Shown piece by piece: positions 6,992-63,767 of a stretch of 64,000 nucleotides of DNA. This DNA comes from Neptunicoccus sediminis. GTDB lineage: Bacteria > Pseudomonadota > Alphaproteobacteria > Rhodobacterales > Rhodobacteraceae. The position numbers and the translations under genes are program-made. Positions within the stretch are counted from its first letter, which is position 1, and every line of letters starts with the position of its first letter. Below the pieces are notes generated by a model. That model saw nothing but the letters and a program-made list of their open reading frames with translations. It did not search any database and was not told the origin of the DNA. The stretch is from assembly GCF_001719615.1 (NCBI RefSeq), contig NZ_MDVX01000003.1, forward strand, positions 1 to 64,000, written 5' to 3'.

Positions 6992-7154
6992 GTGCGAAGC
7001 GGGCGGCTGCCGGACGGATTCCTGTTTACCTTTGGGAAGATAAATAAACCACACTCGCTATTTCCGGTGAGTTTACTACGGCGATTTTCTGTATAAAACT
7101 ACTCGTGGTATAGTTGTATTAACTTCCTGTTAACCTTTGTAAACGAGACTAATT

Positions 7155-8025: not shown

Positions 8026-8196
8026 GAACAGTGTTTTAGGGTGTTAACCTGATGTTAATGAATCCTTACCGTTGCGCGCGGTGATGAGTTGTTAACCAAA
8101 ATTATCGAAGTCTGGACGCAGTTGATCTTGAAATCAGGATCGCCTGCGCATTGCCTGTCATGCATTCCGCCGGCGGTCCGCCTCCGGAGGTTTCCC

Positions 8197-16828: not shown

Positions 16829-16914
16829 GTCAACATACTGCTTATATGAAGCTTCTTAAATGAAGCTTCATATATGACGCGTCTTGTATGACGCTTCATA
16901 TTTGCAGGGTGATC
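16829..16914 (+). repeat. 14-bp-period palindrome array, element A
   Basis: Four 10-bp near-palindromes (TGAAGCTTCT, TGAAGCTTCA, TGACGCGTCT, TGACGCTTCA) start at 16847, 16861, 16875 and 16889, exactly 14 bases apart, separated by 4-base A/T-rich spacers. The left boundary is GTCAACATACTGC and the right is GCAGGGTGATC. Bases 16877-16910 are identical to the reverse complement of 60440-60473 in element B, and the left end matches the inverted right end of element C. The element lies in the gap between the co-directional genes lldD and rplY. Confidence 0.85.
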
Positions 16915-17010: not shown

Positions 17011-17047
17011 AAAACAAAACCACCCGATGCGGTGCAATCGGGTGGTT
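17011..17047 (-). terminator. Rho-independent terminator after lldD
   Basis: On the reverse strand AACCACCCGATT and ATCGGGTGGTT pair around a G/C-rich loop and are followed by the T-rich TTGTTTT. It starts about 27 bases beyond the lldD stop. Confidence 0.85.
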
Positions 17048-17073
17048 TCAAATCGAATTAATCGTACGAAAAG

Positions 17074-18237
17074 CTATTCCCACTCACCCCGAAAATCTTT
17101 CGGGATCAGAAGGTTATCCCGCCCCATATTGTTCAGATCCCGCTCTCCGCACAGGGCCATCGTGATGTCGAGCTCTTTGTGAATCACCTCAAGTGCGGCT
17201 GTCACCCCTTCACGCCCCATCGCGCCAAGTCCGTGGACGAATGACCGCCCGATCATTGTCCCCTTTGCGCCCAGCGAAATGGCCTTCAGCACGTCCTGAC
17301 CGGAGCGGATGCCCCCGTCCATATGCACCTCGATCTGGTCCCCCACAGCATCCACAATATCCGGCAGCATCCGGATAGAGGACATCGCCCCGTCCAACTG
17401 CCGTCCGCCGTGGTTCGACACGATCAGCGCATCTGCACCGACTTCGACCGCTTTTTTCGCATCCTCAACGTCCAGAATACCCTTAAGGATCAGCGGCCCG
17501 CCCCAGCGTTCCTTGATCCAGGCCACATCGTTCCAGTCAAGCGTCGGGTCGAACTGCTCGGCGGTCCATGCGCCGAGGTCGGACATATCTTCAACCCCTT
17601 GAACATGCCCGATAATATTGCGAAAGCTGCGCCGCTTGGTGTTGAGCATGTTATAGGCCCAGCGCGGCTTGGTCGCGATGTTCAGGATGTTGGGCAGGGT
17701 CAGGCGCGGCGGGGCAGAGAGCCCGTTTTTGATGTCTTTATGCCGCTGCCCGAGAATTTGCAGATCATAAGTCAGCACCAGCGCGGAGCATTTCGCCGCC
17801 TTGGCGCGGTCAATCAGGCGGTTGATAAAATCCCGGTCCCGCATCACGTAAAGCTGGAACCAGAACGGTTTTGTTGTGTGTTCGGCCACATCCTCGATCG
17901 AACAAATCGACATGGTGGACAGTGTGAAGGGCACCCCGAAATCCTCAGCGGCTTTCGCGGCGTGGATTTCTCCGTCAGGGTGCTGCATCCCGAGCATTCC
18001 GATCGGCGCGAGCGAGACCGGCATGGCATAGTCCTGACCGAGCATGGACATCCGCGTGTTGCGGTTGGTCATATCCACGGCCACTTTCTGCCGCAGGCGC
18101 AGGCGCGAGAAATCGTCTACATTGTCCCGAAAGGTCTGCTCGCTCCAGCTGCCGCTTTCGGCATAGTCGTAAAACATACGCGGCGTGCGCTGCTGGTGCA
18201 GGGCTTTCAAATCGTAAATGTTGGTAATGGGTGCCAT
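17074..18237 (-). CDS. lldD: L-lactate dehydrogenase (quinone), FMN-dependent alpha-hydroxy-acid oxidase family
   Basis: The 387-residue flavoprotein oxidises L-lactate to pyruvate and feeds electrons to the quinone pool at the inner membrane. Family features include YDYAESGSWSE near the N-terminus, LAPIGMLGMQHPDGE (FMN-binding loop), the QLYVMRDRDF strand, the active-site SNHGGRQLDG block (catalytic His and Arg) and the phosphate-binding DGGIRSGQDVLKA plus GRSFVHGLGA. The strand usually read L-T-V/L-D here is LTYDLQ, a Tyr substitution. The length is usual. It is followed by its own terminator, and an 8-bp palindrome lies about 76-96 bases upstream. Confidence 0.88.
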   Translation of the reverse strand: MAPITNIYDLKALHQQRTPRMFYDYAESGSWSEQTFRDNVDDFSRLRLRQKVAVDMTNRNTRMSMLGQDYAMPVSLAPIGMLGMQHPDGEIHAAKAAEDFGVPFTLSTMSICSIEDVAEHTTKPFWFQLYVMRDRDFINRLIDRAKAAKCSALVLTYDLQILGQRHKDIKNGLSAPPRLTLPNILNIATKPRWAYNMLNTKRRSFRNIIGHVQGVEDMSDLGAWTAEQFDPTLDWNDVAWIKERWGGPLILKGILDVEDAKKAVEVGADALIVSNHGGRQLDGAMSSIRMLPDIVDAVGDQIEVHMDGGIRSGQDVLKAISLGAKGTMIGRSFVHGLGAMGREGVTAALEVIHKELDITMALCGERDLNNMGRDNLLIPKDFRGEWE

Positions 18238-59529: not shown

Positions 59530-60366
59530 ATGAACACCAAACTGCTGCTGATTATTCTGGACGGCGTGCCGTGGCGCAACTGGGGCCGGCTGTTCGGTAA
59601 TCTCGAAGGGCATGTAGATGCGGGCAATGCGCAAAAATGGAAGATGCGCTCGGTTCTGCCGTCAATTTCCGCAAGCTGCTATGCCTCTATTCATACAGGG
59701 GTTGTGCCTGCGGAACACGGCTGTACCGGCAATGGCAATGTGTTCCGGCTGAACCATCCGGACGTGTTTTCGCAAGTGCGTCAGTCCGGCGGGGTGACAG
59801 GCGCGGTGGCCCACTCCTTCTGGTCGGAGTTCTTTAATCGTGCGCCGTTTGATAATGTGCGGGACGTGGAATACGACGAACCGGACAGCGCCACAATCAA
59901 CCATGGCCGGTTTCACACGATGACGGGCTATGGCCGCGCCAACCAGATGACGCCTTGCGATCTGGACCTGTTCGGCACGCTGACCAATCTGTGTCTGCGC
60001 TTCGGACTGGATTACGGGATGTTGCACACCTGTACGCTGGACAGCATGGGTCACCGCTATTTTCACGAGAGCGAGGAAATGGACGGGGCCTGTTTTATTA
60101 TGGACGAGATGCTGGCGCCGTTTATCCCGAAATGGCGCGCCGCAGGGTATGAGGTGATGGTGACGGCGGATCACGGGCAAGACGAGCGCGGCCATCACGG
60201 TGGCCGCTCGCCGCTGCAACAGGAATTCGCGCTTTATTATTTTGGCGAGGCTCAGGGGCCATCTGCGGATACGGTGCTGGAGCAGGTGCAACTGGCACCC
60301 ACGATCCTGACCAGACTGGGGGCCGAGGTGCCCGAGACGATGAAGGCAAAGCCGTTTTTATCGTAA
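59530..60366 (+). CDS. Alkaline phosphatase superfamily protein, phosphodiesterase/nucleotide pyrophosphatase-like
   Basis: The 278-residue protein belongs to the alkaline phosphatase superfamily. Metal ligands are visible: D11 in LIILDGV, then DSMGH (Asp and His), TADHGQ (Asp-His) and GHHGG. The nucleophile position, Thr in classic nucleotide pyrophosphatases, is Ser47 in LPSISASCYASIHTG. No signal peptide is present. The length is short for the family, without accessory domains. It follows the importer operon and may hydrolyse a phosphodiester or phosphonate brought in by it; that is inference. Confidence 0.85.
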   Translation: MNTKLLLIILDGVPWRNWGRLFGNLEGHVDAGNAQKWKMRSVLPSISASCYASIHTGVVPAEHGCTGNGNVFRLNHPDVFSQVRQSGGVTGAVAHSFWSEFFNRAPFDNVRDVEYDEPDSATINHGRFHTMTGYGRANQMTPCDLDLFGTLTNLCLRFGLDYGMLHTCTLDSMGHRYFHESEEMDGACFIMDEMLAPFIPKWRAAGYEVMVTADHGQDERGHHGGRSPLQQEFALYYFGEAQGPSADTVLEQVQLAPTILTRLGAEVPETMKAKPFLS

Positions 60367-60435: not shown

Positions 60436-60533
60436 GATGACCCTGCAAATATGAAGCGTCATACAAGACGCGTGTTATATGAAGCTTCGTAAATGAAGCT
60501 TCTTAAACGAAGCTTCATAAATGCAGGATGATC
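60436..60533 (+). repeat. 14-bp-period palindrome array, element B
   Basis: Five 10-bp units begin at about 60452, 60466, 60480, 60494 and 60508, 14 bases apart: TGAAGCGTCA, AGACGCGTGT, TGAAGCTTCG, TGAAGCTTCT, CGAAGCTTCA, with TAAA/TATA-type spacers. The boundaries are GATGACCCTGC (left) and GCAGGATGATC (right), near-inverted copies. The right boundary runs into the stop codon of the convergent sulfotransferase gene (TGA at 60534-60532). Bases 60440-60473 are the exact inverse of 16877-16910. Confidence 0.85.
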
Positions 60534-61140
60534 AGCGACCCGTTAACGCTGTTTCGGGATTGGGAAGGGCGCGATACCATTCAAACGCCTCGGGGAAGGC
60601 GGCCTCGTAGCGGGGGCGATGGACGGAGAAGTCCGTATCGGCCACAGGCGCGGAAACGTTAAGATGGGGCAGTGAGAAATCCGCGCCATAAATGCTTTGC
60701 AGCAGGGTCTCAAAGGCGCCGAGGTTTTCGTATTTGTGGATAATATCAACCGTCTCGTTGCTGCGGCTGTCCACGCAAAACAGATTGTCGAGAAACTCCA
60801 TCGCCCATCCGCTTTTGCCGGTGATAAAGTTGTTCAGGAAGGTCTTAAAATCCAGATCCCCCACATAACGGGGATCGCCCTGTAGCTCCGGGCGTGCGCG
60901 GAATTTGTACCAGCTGACGGCTTTGTCAAACGGCTCTCGCACCACGGTGATTGTGGTGAATCCCTTGGTGCGCAGCGGCTGCTCCATCCGCTTGTAACGG
61001 GTGTAATCAATGTGTTTCAGCACCGGATTGCCGTTCAGCCGCGCCATGCCCTTAACCTGTCCAAGGGCGCGCTCCATTGAGGTGGAAGCAACTTTGCGGT
61101 TGGACAGAAACACCAGTTTCCGGTCGTAATCAATCATCAT
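60532..61140 (-). CDS. Sulfotransferase-like protein (sulfotransfer_2 type)
   Basis: The 202-residue cytoplasmic protein has the 5' PAPS-binding type loop VFLSNRKVASTSMERAL near residues 10-25 and the 3' phosphate-binding region ITVVREPFDKAVSWYKFR near residues 64-80. These are the motifs of carbohydrate sulfotransferases; the acceptor (polysaccharide, glycolipid or other) is unknown. The start MMIDYDRKL is at 61140. Its stop is within the terminal motif of repeat element B. It lies 23 bases downstream of the esterase gene on the same strand. Confidence 0.75.
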   Translation of the reverse strand: MMIDYDRKLVFLSNRKVASTSMERALGQVKGMARLNGNPVLKHIDYTRYKRMEQPLRTKGFTTITVVREPFDKAVSWYKFRARPELQGDPRYVGDLDFKTFLNNFITGKSGWAMEFLDNLFCVDSRSNETVDIIHKYENLGAFETLLQSIYGADFSLPHLNVSAPVADTDFSVHRPRYEAAFPEAFEWYRALPNPETALTGR

Positions 61141-61163: not shown

Positions 61164-62081
61164 TTAATAGGGCCAGTCCCGCTGTTGCAGCGCGTTCAGC
61201 GCCGCGATTACACGGTCAAAACTGTCGCGGGCCCGCTTTACGGTATGGCGACCGCGCAGATAACCGTGCACCAGACCCGTTTCGTTGAACCAGACAACCT
61301 TGCCGTCGGCCGCGGTCAGAGCATCGCGGTAATCGCGGCATCCATCGGTAATCGGGTCACATTCTGCCGAGATCAGCACGGTCGGGGGCAGGTTGGAAAA
61401 ATCCGTGTCTTGCAGGGGAACGGCAGTGGGATCGTTTGTGGGTTTCGGCCCGTCATAGCGCACCCCCTCGTAGAACAGGATCTCATCCCGCGTCAGCATC
61501 GGCGCATTGGCGTGGGTGAGGAAGGACCCCGCATCTATATCCCCGCCCAGTCCGGGATAGATCAGCACCTGTCCGATCAAGCGGGGATCGTTGCGCAGAC
61601 GGTGGCTGACGGTTGCCCCGAGATTGCCGCCGGCACTGTCACCGGCAAGGATTACAGGACCGTCGCGGGTCGCCAGAATATGCTGTGTCGCTGCGAGACA
61701 GTCTTCGAACATGGCGGGGTGTTTATGCTCGGGCGCCATCCGGTAATCCACCGATACCACGTCCATGCCGGTCCGCTCGCAGATTTCGGCGCAGACGTCA
61801 TCATGGGAGTCGAGCCCCCCGACCACAAAGCCGCCGCCGTGAAAGTACATCACGGTCGATTCAGAGCCGCCGCTGGTGTACTGGCGGGTGGGAATATGGC
61901 CGATCATGTGATCCGTTGCACTGACGCCGTCGGGGTAGCCGGTGAAAAACGCGCGGCACATCGTGTCATAGATGTCGCGCTGTTGTTCTATGGTGTTGTT
62001 CACCGTGTCGGGCGGATAATATTCCTCCGTTTTATTGATGAAGTCCCAGGTCTCTGCGTCGATGTGTTTTGAATAATCCAT
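61164..62081 (-). CDS. HSL-family alpha/beta-hydrolase (acetyl esterase-like)
   Basis: The 305-residue protein has the HGGG oxyanion motif in VMYFHGGGFVVGGLDSHD and the nucleophile elbow GDSAGGNLG, both diagnostic of the hormone-sensitive-lipase/Aes family. The catalytic His is expected in ETGLVHGYLRGRH near residue 270 and an Asp in ISAECDPITDG. No signal peptide is seen. It probably hydrolyses short-chain esters. It is divergent from the PcaB-like gene across a gap holding repeat element C. Confidence 0.9.
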   Translation of the reverse strand: MDYSKHIDAETWDFINKTEEYYPPDTVNNTIEQQRDIYDTMCRAFFTGYPDGVSATDHMIGHIPTRQYTSGGSESTVMYFHGGGFVVGGLDSHDDVCAEICERTGMDVVSVDYRMAPEHKHPAMFEDCLAATQHILATRDGPVILAGDSAGGNLGATVSHRLRNDPRLIGQVLIYPGLGGDIDAGSFLTHANAPMLTRDEILFYEGVRYDGPKPTNDPTAVPLQDTDFSNLPPTVLISAECDPITDGCRDYRDALTAADGKVVWFNETGLVHGYLRGRHTVKRARDSFDRVIAALNALQQRDWPY

Positions 62082-62134
62082 AGGCGCAACCTAGGACCGG
62101 TGGCGGGAGGCTGCAAGGCTTTCCTAACGTTTCG

Positions 62135-62197
62135 TTACTTTAGAAGCTTCATTTAAGAAGCTTCTTATATGAAGCTTCATATATGCAGTATGTTAAC
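62135..62197 (+). repeat. 14-bp-period palindrome array, element C
   Basis: Three 10-bp units start at 62142, 62156 and 62170 (AGAAGCTTCA, AGAAGCTTCT, TGAAGCTTCA) with 4-base A/T-rich spacers. The right boundary is GCAGTATGTTAAC, the near-inverse of the left boundary of element A (GTCAACATACTGC). The left boundary is not clear; only GTTACTTT remains. It lies in the divergent gap between the esterase and the PcaB-like gene. Confidence 0.75.
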
Positions 62198-62423
62198 GGG
62201 GTTAAGCCAGAGATAACAACAGGTTGCGAATCTCCCGCTCGGGCGGTTGTCCCAGTGCGACGCGGCAGAAACACGGGTCAGTTCCCGCTGGTTCAACGCC
62301 CACCCGCCTGTCGCTGGAACGCCGATGGTGGCCCACCCCCAGCGCAGACTTGTGACAAAAATCGGGATGACCTTCGGAGTTGCAAAATGTATGGTCGCGC
62401 CAAATCAGAACACGGGTGCGATT
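62198..62423. other. Gene-free stretch upstream of the PcaB-like gene
   Basis: It should hold the promoter of the lyase gene. An in-frame reading back to 62247 is not family-like, so I do not extend the gene. I see no clear -35/-10 pair or hairpin. Confidence 0.35.
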
Positions 62424-63767
62424 ATGGCGATTTCCTTGGCCGAAGGGCAGATATTCAGAGGTTTGTTCGGGGATAGCGAACTCTCGGTGTTGTTTTCAGA
62501 CAGCGCCGAAGTTCGCGCAATGTTGCTGGTCGAAGGGGCGCTGGCCTCTGCGCAGGGCAAGCTTGGCACGATCCCGCAAGAAAGCGGAGAGATCATCAAT
62601 CGCATGGCCCGTGAGGTGCTGATTGATCCGGGGCATCTGGCCGCCGGTGTGGCGCGGGACGGTGTGGTGGTTCCAGCACTGGTCGCGGCCTTTGCAACCG
62701 AAATGCAGGCGCCCGAGCACAGCGCCTATTTGCATAAGGGGGCGACCTCGCAAGATATTATAGATACGGCTCTGGTACTGCGCCTGCGCCGCGTTCTCGA
62801 CATTCTGGATACCCGGCTTGCGGGTCTGCTCGATACGCTGGCAGAACAGGCCGACACCTACAAGTCCACCCCGATGGGTGCGCGGACGCGCCACCAGATC
62901 GCCACGCCGACAGCGCTCGGGGCGCGGATTGCGGGCTGGGGAGCACCGTTTTTGCGCCATCGCCAGCGGCTGGCGGAACTGCGCCCCCGTCTGCTGGTGG
63001 TTTCGCTCGCCGGTGCTGCGGGCAATCTCTCCGCCTTTGAGGGGCGGGGGCTGGAAACGGCGGATGCGCTGGCGGAAGAGCTTGGGCTCGGGCGGGCGGA
63101 ACTGCCGTGGCATTCGGCGCGGGACGGGATTTGCGAACTGGCGAACCTGTGCGGGTTGATCTGTGGATCGCTAGGCAAGATCGCACAGGATTTGCTGCTG
63201 TCTGCGCAGATCGGGGAGGGTCTGCGGGCAGGCACGGGCGGTGGCTCCAGCACGATGCCCCATAAGGACAATCCGACAGGGGCCGAGGCGATGCTGTCAC
63301 TGGCACGTCAGGGGCAGGGGCTGGCGGCACAGGTCGCGGGTGCAGCACTTCATGCGCAGGAACGGGACGGTGCGGCCTGGTCGCAGGAATGGCTTTCGCT
63401 GCCTTCTCTGATTGTGGCTACAGGTGCTGCGCTGCGTCACGGTCTTGAGTTGTCAAAGTTCTTAAGCGTGGAACCGGACAAGCTGGCTGCTGTTTTTGAG
63501 GACACAAAAGGTTTGATGATGGCCGAAGCCGCAAGCTTCGCGCTGGCCGCGCATATGCCGCTGGCCGATGCCCGCACACTGACCAAATCCGCCTGTGCCA
63601 AAGCCGTCCAGTCCGGTGAGCCGTTGCGGGAGGTTATAGCGCGTGAAACCATGCTTGCGATTGACTGGGACGCCGTGTTCGATGCGCAATCCGCCTTGGG
63701 AGAGTCCAGCGCCATCGTTGCGCGGTTTTGTGAAGCGGTCGCAAGGCAGCGCGTGGAGTCCGCTTAG
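62424..63767 (+). CDS. pcaB: PcaB-like 3-carboxy-cis,cis-muconate cycloisomerase (aspartase/fumarase superfamily)
   Basis: The 447-residue protein belongs to the aspartase/fumarase superfamily: HKGATSQDIIDTALVLRLR near residue 95, the signature GGSSTMPHKDNPTGAEAML near residues 275-293, and the catalytic Ser loop within it. Sequence feel and length fit PcaB, which cyclises 3-carboxymuconate in the protocatechuate branch, but adenylosuccinate-lyase-like family members cannot be excluded. The start is uncertain: ATG 62424 lacks a strong ribosome-binding site and 62367 is an alternative. It converges with the MarR gene with a 4-base overlap. No other pca gene is present in the window. Confidence 0.7.
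   Translation: MAISLAEGQIFRGLFGDSELSVLFSDSAEVRAMLLVEGALASAQGKLGTIPQESGEIINRMAREVLIDPGHLAAGVARDGVVVPALVAAFATEMQAPEHSAYLHKGATSQDIIDTALVLRLRRVLDILDTRLAGLLDTLAEQADTYKSTPMGARTRHQIATPTALGARIAGWGAPFLRHRQRLAELRPRLLVVSLAGAAGNLSAFEGRGLETADALAEELGLGRAELPWHSARDGICELANLCGLICGSLGKIAQDLLLSAQIGEGLRAGTGGGSSTMPHKDNPTGAEAMLSLARQGQGLAAQVAGAALHAQERDGAAWSQEWLSLPSLIVATGAALRHGLELSKFLSVEPDKLAAVFEDTKGLMMAEAASFALAAHMPLADARTLTKSACAKAVQSGEPLREVIARETMLAIDWDAVFDAQSALGESSAIVARFCEAVARQRVESA

What the first reader, a model, noticed from the sequence alone, without database searches (positions are those of the whole stretch)
16829..16914. Family of short elements made of near-palindromes at an exact 14-bp period
Three separate intergenic sites (16829-16914, 60436-60533, 62135-62197) contain 3-5 units of the form TGAAGCTTCW or its GACGCGTC variant, each followed by a 4-base A/T-rich spacer, giving a 14-bp period with no slippage. 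The units are palindromic, so an array could fold as a long hairpin or serve as an ordered protein-binding ladder. The 14-bp phase is not a multiple of the helical turn, so adjacent sites would face different sides of the DNA. I do not recognise this as a named repeat class.
Basis: seen in the sequence. Interest (0 to 1): 0.85.

Follow-up and report, generated by a model that had tools for sequence, protein, structure and literature searches.

The report
Tandem palindrome ladders between bacterial genes
A small group of marine bacteria carries about thirty short, strictly spaced palindrome ladders between genes, mostly at places kept across near relatives; they look more like docking tracks for an unknown DNA-binding protein than junk or RNA hairpins, but that protein has not been found.

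Summary
The three window arrays belong to 31 elements in this genome: 1-7 units of WTNNAW-GAMGCKTC, 14 bp apart, between special ends. Exact unit pairs occur in 5 of 33 genus members; an exact three-unit scan of 84,980 species, which would miss variant units, hit only Amylibacter cionae and two related MAGs. They are mostly inherited in place: 27 of 31 have an orthologous element in one or both of two relatives, though others were gained or lost. In internal units six positions changed in 2.2% of comparisons against 31% for the spacer's middle. Convergent gene pairs are favoured (17 of 31; 10-15% expected). Orthologs show no paired changes across the spacer. One relative has a sister family built mostly on GACGCGTC with CtrA-like flanks. 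Best reading: contiguous binding sites for an unidentified DNA-binding protein. Main rival: a REP-like repeat without function. No protein was found, and no described family seen here fits.

The parts
16830..16914 (.). Ladder element 1 (four units), between the genes for ribosomal protein L25 (15937-16575, -) and an FMN-dependent dehydrogenase (17074-18237, -)
   Evidence: Sequence; tandem repeat of period 14; profile hits; neighbours; orthologous elements L084 and L144
16834..16841 (+). Left end motif CATACTGC (type B), one 14-bp step outside the first unit
16848..16855 (.). Unit 1 GAAGCTTC
16862..16869 (.). Unit 2 GAAGCTTC
16876..16883 (.). Unit 3 GACGCGTC
16890..16897 (.). Unit 4 GACGCTTC
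16904..16911 (-). Right end motif, CACCCTGC on the minus strand (type A)
17019..17048 (-). Terminator-like hairpin of the 17074-18237 gene, lying between its stop codon and the ladder
60436..60533 (.). Ladder element 2 (five units at 60453, 60467, 60481, 60495, 60509; end motifs GACCCTGC at 60439-60446 and GCAGGATG at 60523-60530), between convergent genes 59530-60366 (+) and 60532-61140 (-); its right edge touches the stop of the second gene
   Evidence: neighbours; orthologs L083 and L136
62123..62197 (.). Ladder element 3 (three units at 62143, 62157, 62171; left flank 62123-62142 with TAAC and TTAC, right end motif GCAGTATG 62185-62192), between divergent genes 61164-62081 (-) and 62325-63767 (+; an earlier start at 62247 is possible)
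   Evidence: neighbours; orthologs L083 and L136

Best explanation
Each element is a contiguous track of binding sites for one DNA-binding protein. A dimer reads two GAMGC half-sites, accepting A or C at the third base. Dimers dock side by side every 14 bp, spiralling so that every third one faces the same way, and the end motifs limit the track. The tracks sit mostly behind gene ends, about thirty per genome, so the bound protein most likely acts on the chromosome itself (anchor, barrier or topology site between converging genes) rather than as a promoter switch. Shown: the family, the period, the constraint, conserved position, convergent bias. Inferred: that a protein binds, that it is cooperative, and what it does.
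For: Constraint: in internal units of orthologs six unit positions changed in 11 of 510 comparisons, the middle of the spacer in 53 of 170; spacer positions 1 and 6 changed almost only between A and T (31 of 32), unit positions 3/6 mostly A/C or G/T (21 of 25). Third unit base A 199, C 79, G 1, T 0 of 279 units. Position: 27 of 31 G000 elements have a two-sided orthologous element in G002 or G012. Unit number differs in 34 of 63 ortholog pairs, yet no perfect unit lies out of register within 60 bp of these genomes' 76 elements. Location: 17 of 31 convergent against 10-15% expected, p 2e-7 or less; 2 divergent. Of 40 gene ends facing a ladder with room, 24 have a terminator-like hairpin before it, 12.8 in shuffles. 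No paired changes across the spacer. One relative uses mostly GACGCGTC units.
Against: No protein was identified. The ladders come and go: of the 31 G000 elements G002 lacks 6, has what looks like one decayed remnant and one cut to a single unit, which also suits a repeat without function. Half-sites facing each other across a spacer agree more often than chance (G000 odds ratio 2.7, p 0.02; three genomes 2.2, p 0.01; with end motifs counted 3.3, p 0.005), as pairing would predict. Within-unit and outer partners changed together slightly more than chance (8 and 5 times, p 0.05 each). Only 2 elements are shared, with both neighbours, with G020. Units were found by likeness to the motif, which flatters the constraint, and species pairs are not independent. 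Neighbouring genes show no common theme.
Confidence: 0.45

Rival explanations
1. A REP/BIME-like dispersed repeat that spread by copying in the ancestor of this clade, tolerated behind genes, with no function of its own; the mobilising enzyme is gone or unknown.
For: Dispersed, intergenic, palindromic, convergent bias and few divergent gaps, the location habit that the abstract of PMC3733652 gives for REPs. Gains and losses between related species. Inverted end motifs. Near-identical copies of one subtype in G028.
Against: The transposase family Y1_Tnp (PF01797) was not found in any of the 5 carriers, one of which (G028) is only 72% complete. Position-specific constraint. Few worn copies in G000: 110 of 111 profile hits fall on the 31 elements, though only 150 of 971 first-look candidates were scored. 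No hit to the exact pattern in viral contigs, nor of one ladder in plasmids and another in phages (the low-complexity filter is on).
Confidence: 0.3
2. The ladders act as RNA: transcripts running in from both converging genes fold into rows of hairpins that end transcription or protect 3' ends.
For: Strong predicted folds for the three window elements, z -4.3 to -8.6 on both strands. Convergent placement. Short terminator-like matches inside ladders at sites 1 and 2. Static agreement of half-sites across spacers; in G020 also within units, outer and mirror partners.
Against: Orthologs: across the spacer 29 one-sided changes against 2 two-sided, as by chance; outer partners 24 against 5 (p 0.05), within-unit 45 against 8 (p 0.05). 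No mirror agreement in G000, G002 and G012. Many genes have a terminator-like hairpin before the ladder. No Rfam match in the window at gathering score.
Confidence: 0.15
3. The ladders are part of cell-cycle control: CtrA binds the TTAA-N7-TTAA flanks and a partner binds the ladder.
For: In G020, 40 of 52 ends not of the CTGC type match both TTAA elements at 3 of 4 bases or better; 330 of 167,150 positions of the same loci do (0.2%, the ends themselves included). The CtrA full site is given as TTAA-N7-TTAA with variant TTAACCAT (passages of PMC6180460). Neighbours in G000 include GapR and an adenine methylase with a RAMA domain, like CcrM (the CcrM likeness is recalled).
Against: In G000 only 8 of 21 such ends show the flank, and 0 of the other 41 by the test shifted one unit. 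Only 2 of 31 elements lie in divergent gaps. Few cell-cycle-like genes among the 62 neighbours scanned.
Confidence: 0.08

Closest known systems
REP / BIME repeats, including the CGTC-tagged REPs of alphaproteobacteria (PMC3733652, PMC2817692)
   Same: Short, palindromic, dispersed, extragenic, rich in convergent and unidirectional gaps; CGTC REPs also lack a dedicated transposase (abstract and passages of PMC3733652)
   Different: REPs are described as 20-40 bp palindromes with an unpaired GTAG or CGTC tag at one end; here 8-bp palindromes recur every 14 bp in one register, 1-7 units, with other ends, and no Y1 transposase was found in the carriers
Arrayed operators of ribbon-helix-helix proteins, e.g. 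pSM19035 parS with 7-10 consecutive 7-bp repeats (PMC9499535, passages)
   Same: Contiguous, strictly spaced short sites of variable number; 14 is two heptads
   Different: About 30 chromosomal places, palindromic 14-bp unit, no known protein
CtrA full site TTAA-N7-TTAA (PMC6180460, passages)
   Same: The flanks of most G020 ladders match it
   Different: Rarely at divergent promoters; missing from most G000 ends
GapR-rich convergent gaps under positive supercoiling (PMC8360656, passages)
   Same: Same kind of place: between converging genes; one ladder lies beside gapR itself in four species
   Different: GapR reads supercoiled DNA, and a gapR match is found in 33 of 33 genus members (clear in 32, weak in G019), the ladders in 5

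Membership tests
REP (GTAG/CGTC superfamilies) | Extragenic palindromic repeat, mostly downstream of genes | tested here: met
   G000: 17 of 31 between convergent genes, 12 tandem, 2 divergent, by a home-made gene caller
REP (GTAG/CGTC superfamilies) | Unpaired GTAG or CGTC tag at one end of a 20-40 bp hairpin | tested here: not met
   By reading the listed elements, no dedicated scan: no such tag seen; the commonest unit GAAGCTTC (142 of 279) holds no CGTC, and where CGTC occurs it is half of a palindrome
REP (GTAG superfamily) | RAYT-type Y1 transposase in the genome | tested here: not met
   PF01797 matched in 5 of 33 genomes, none of them a carrier; carrier G028 is 72% complete
MITE / insertion sequence derivative | Target-site duplication and precise empty sites | tested here: inconclusive
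   Sites lacking the element were found (4 elements absent from both relatives, 2 more from G002), but the gaps are too diverged to see a duplication
Intrinsic terminator | G+C-rich hairpin followed by a T run serving the upstream gene | tested here: inconclusive
   Short matches inside the ladders at sites 1 and 2; 24 of 40 gene ends with room have a terminator-like hairpin before the ladder, shuffles 12.8
Structured RNA family | Covarying base pairs among orthologs, or an Rfam match | tested here: not met
   No excess of paired changes across the spacer; weak excess for outer and within-unit partners, p 0.05 each; no Rfam hit in the window at gathering score
Cooperative operator array | Position-specific constraint in every repeat with fixed spacing | tested here: met
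   for G000, G002 and G012
Cooperative operator array | A cognate protein that binds the repeats | not testable with these tools
   No candidate found; needs pull-down or ChIP
CtrA site | TTAA-N7-TTAA | tested here: inconclusive
   Most G020 ends, a minority in G000

The most novel reading that the evidence does not exclude
A clade-specific chromosome system: about thirty ladders per genome bind one lineage-specific protein that coats them as a three-start spiral between converging genes. In a sister species reader and ladders have shifted together from AAGCTT-rich to ACGCGT units across the genome, including one orthologous place (L025 and L097), so that ladder and reader co-evolve like lock and key.
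Probability: 0.25. Interest if true: 0.82.

Novelty: new variant of a known kind. Interest (0 to 1): 0.58.

Why it matters
If the ladders are binding tracks, this is a natural set of some thirty graded arrays (1-7 sites) at conserved chromosomal places, present in the named strain Amylibacter cionae m18, with near relatives that lack them. Such a set would let one measure what coating of DNA between converging genes does to transcription, supercoiling or segregation. If they are inert, they are still an unusually regular repeat family for which no mobilising enzyme was found.

Tried and rejected
RAYT/Y1 transposase as mobiliser: not found in the 5 carriers. RNA structure: folds are strong, but ortholog changes show no compensation across the spacer. 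Chance: excluded. Phage or plasmid origin: exact three-unit pattern 0 in viral contigs; one ladder against plasmids and another against phages, no match. Origin- or terminus-bound marks: 26 places on the G020 chromosome do not differ from uniform (KS p 0.80). Common function of neighbours: none seen among the 62 flanking genes of G000 scanned with Pfam (6 at E up to 1e-3, 56 at E up to 1e-12).

Diverged ladders in non-carriers: in 292 kb of G005 (about 9% of it) the de novo scan gave no period-14 hit and four hits at periods 13, 21, 22 and 24 that do not resemble ladders; about 2.3 elements would be expected there at the density of G000, so this is weak. The profile from G020 hit the 5 carriers plus one marginal place in G007 (E 0.009), with only 150 of several hundred first-look candidates scored in each genome. 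At the gapR locus 30 loci were returned for 33 genomes: ladders in G000, G002, G012 and G020; no unit pair in the other 26, among them carrier G028; in one of the 26 (G008) the contig ends before the gap. Single-gene trees did not resolve the place of G005 and G008. At sites 2 and 3 gene order in G005, G008 and G020 is too rearranged to show an empty site.

Papers: nine of ten searches used; only listings were seen there and none showed a ladder of this kind. Corrections to my own counts: one search counted one element twice (18 of 32); the right count is 17 of 31. Searches counted some end motifs as units; the stricter count is (279 units instead of 301; 34 instead of 41 of 63 ortholog pairs differing in unit number). 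The flank identities (0.74 for orthologs, 0.68 for unrelated flanks, aligned columns only) are a poor measure and are not used.

Full report
What was checked. The three arrays are in the window as described. Two units 14 bp apart occur more often than in shuffled sequence (12 matches, shuffle mean 3.4, 0 of 100 shuffles reach it). A scan for any palindromic ladder at periods 9-24 returned these three and nothing else in the window. TRF reports them as period-14 arrays.

How many and where. In the window's own genome (3.86 Mb, 72 contigs) a sequence-only profile of element ends gives 111 hits up to E 1, of which 110 fall on 31 elements; 150 of 971 first-look candidates were scored. Exact unit pairs number 60 against 0 for the pattern read backwards. 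In the genus 5 of 33 genomes carry exact pairs: G000 60, G012 47, G002 38, G020 16, G028 15; the other 28 have none. In a family draw of 295 genomes (G000, one other of its genus, and 293 of other genera) the only other hits are single pairs in G259 and G261, which I take for chance. An exact three-unit scan of one genome for each of 84,980 species gave 18 loci: 8 in MAG P03SST1bin.12, 8 in Amylibacter cionae m18 and 2 in an uncultured Amylibacter MAG. That pattern is strict: it would miss ladders like most of those in G020, and the tool says that records near the window's own may be left out. Contig lengths tie G002, G012 and G028 to these three.

Anatomy. For G000, G002 and G012 I looked at 76 elements (31, 23 and 22; for G012, 20 stretches of those indicated were fetched; for G002 the stretch L077 gave no element under the detection rule). 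They hold 279 units, of which 142 are GAAGCTTC. The third base is A 199, C 79, G 1, T 0, and the sixth is T 194, G 83, A 1, C 1. Spacers follow W-T-N-N-A-W for the most part. Ends come in three types: GATSACCCTGCAAATAT before GAAGCGTC (A), TTAACATACTGCATATAT before GAAGCTTC (B) and TTAAC-N6-TTAAYCAT (C). The A end looks like a worn unit in register (GACCCTGC). In G000 33 of 62 ends are type A, 8 type B and 21 other. Within 60 bp of these 76 elements no perfect unit lies out of register; G020 and G028 show 5 and 18 such listings, some counted twice, mostly a 12+14 variant.

A sister family. In G020 (one contig of 3.45 Mb) the commonest unit is GACGCGTC (40 of 92), with first and last base variable. 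Of 52 ends that are not of the CTGC type, 40 show TTAA-N7-TTAA at 3 of 4 bases or better in both elements, against 0.2% of positions in the same loci. This matches the CtrA full site as given in passages of PMC6180460. A profile of these ends hits the 5 carriers and one marginal place in G007.

Inheritance. With both flanks required, 27 of 31 G000 elements have an orthologous element in G002 or G012. For G002: 23 have a two-sided ortholog, one has shrunk to a single unit (L065), one looks like a decayed remnant (L028), and six are absent (L020, L027, L030, L032, L063, L066). Four (L020, L027, L063, L066) are absent from both relatives. Ortholog pairs differ in unit number in 34 of 63 cases. 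Between the G000 group and G020 two elements are shared with both neighbours (L025 with L097, L029 with L105) and two more with one neighbour (L016 with L124, L024 with L126); a third one-sided match (L065, L098) is in an inconsistent orientation. Beside gapR the ladder is found in G000, G002, G012 and G020, and not in the 25 other gapR gaps that could be read, one of them of carrier G028.

Constraint. In internal units of orthologs, six unit positions changed in 11 of 510 comparisons (2.2%), unit positions 3/6 in 25 of 170, spacer T2/A5 in 22 of 170, spacer 1/6 in 32 of 170 (31 of them between A and T), and the middle spacer in 53 of 170 (31%). Changes at 3/6 are mainly A/C or G/T (21 of 25). 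These are transversions; drift would usually favour transitions. A and C share an amino group, G and T a keto group in the major groove (general knowledge), which is what a protein reading the groove would see. Caution: units were picked by likeness to the motif, so the lowest figure is flattering, and species pairs are not independent.

RNA or DNA. The three window elements fold strongly as RNA on both strands, z from -4.3 to -8.6, as any such palindrome row would. If pairing mattered, partners should change together. Within a genome, half-sites facing each other across a spacer do agree more often than chance (G000 odds ratio 2.7, p 0.02; three genomes 2.2, p 0.01), and within-unit partners too (2.0, p 0.08 and 0.02), while mirror partners do not. 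Over time, across-spacer partners changed together 2 times and singly 29 times, no more than chance; outer partners 5 together and 24 singly (p 0.05); within-unit partners 8 together and 45 singly (p 0.05). In G020 within-unit, outer and mirror agreement are above chance, though nearly all units there are of one type. So the evidence leans against an RNA stem without excluding it.

Context. With a home-made gene caller, 17 of 31 G000 elements lie between convergent genes, 12 tandem, 2 divergent; one of the two divergent calls (L029) rests on a short reading frame without a Pfam match. Convergent gaps make up 10.8% of intergenic bases in the window and 14.5% in the G005 stretches, p 2e-9 and 2e-7; divergent gaps are under-used, p 0.02 and 0.05. 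Of 40 gene ends that face an element with at least 45 bp of room, 24 have a terminator-like hairpin before the ladder, against 12.8 in mononucleotide shuffles; at site 1 the FMN-dehydrogenase gene has one. Pfam of the 62 flanking genes shows mixed metabolism, transport and regulation. Among them are GapR and an adenine methylase with a RAMA domain (CcrM-like, recalled), too few to make a theme.

Judgement. Conserved place, kept register through length changes, a strict but degenerate alphabet and placement behind genes fit tracks for a DNA-binding protein better than an inert repeat or an RNA. The protein, its cooperation and its task are inference. Membership in the REP class fails on tag and transposase, though its location habit is the same. 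I searched the paper library nine times and saw listings, plus passages of PMC12306157, PMC9499535, PMC6180460, PMC2817692, PMC3733652 (with its abstract) and PMC8360656. Nothing seen there describes this family; most subscription papers are not in that library.

Noticed in passing
L116, L117, L118, L119, L120, L122 (genome G028): A ladder subtype with a 12-bp step (GAAGCGTCTAAAAGAGCGTCTTGTTTGAAGC, in either orientation) recurs almost unchanged, more like recent copying than the elements of the other genomes; some of these contigs may be assembly duplicates.
   Followed up: partly
L016, L087, L128, L124: A ladder lies beside gapR in four species although in G020 the gene on the other side is different.
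   Followed up: partly
L021, L026: Two other ladders lie beside a gene for an adenine methylase with a RAMA domain and beside a gene with a gene-transfer-agent holin domain.
   Followed up: no
window 7118-7134 and 8043-8059: Two sites TTAAC-N6-TTAAC that read nearly the same on both strands, like paired CtrA boxes, away from any ladder.
   Followed up: no
L065 against L204 (G002): An element of five units in G000 is reduced to a single unit with both end motifs intact in G002.
   Followed up: yes
L054, L055 (genomes G017, G008): REP-type Y1 transposase genes occur in five genus members without the exact ladders; what repeats they serve was not looked at.
   Followed up: no
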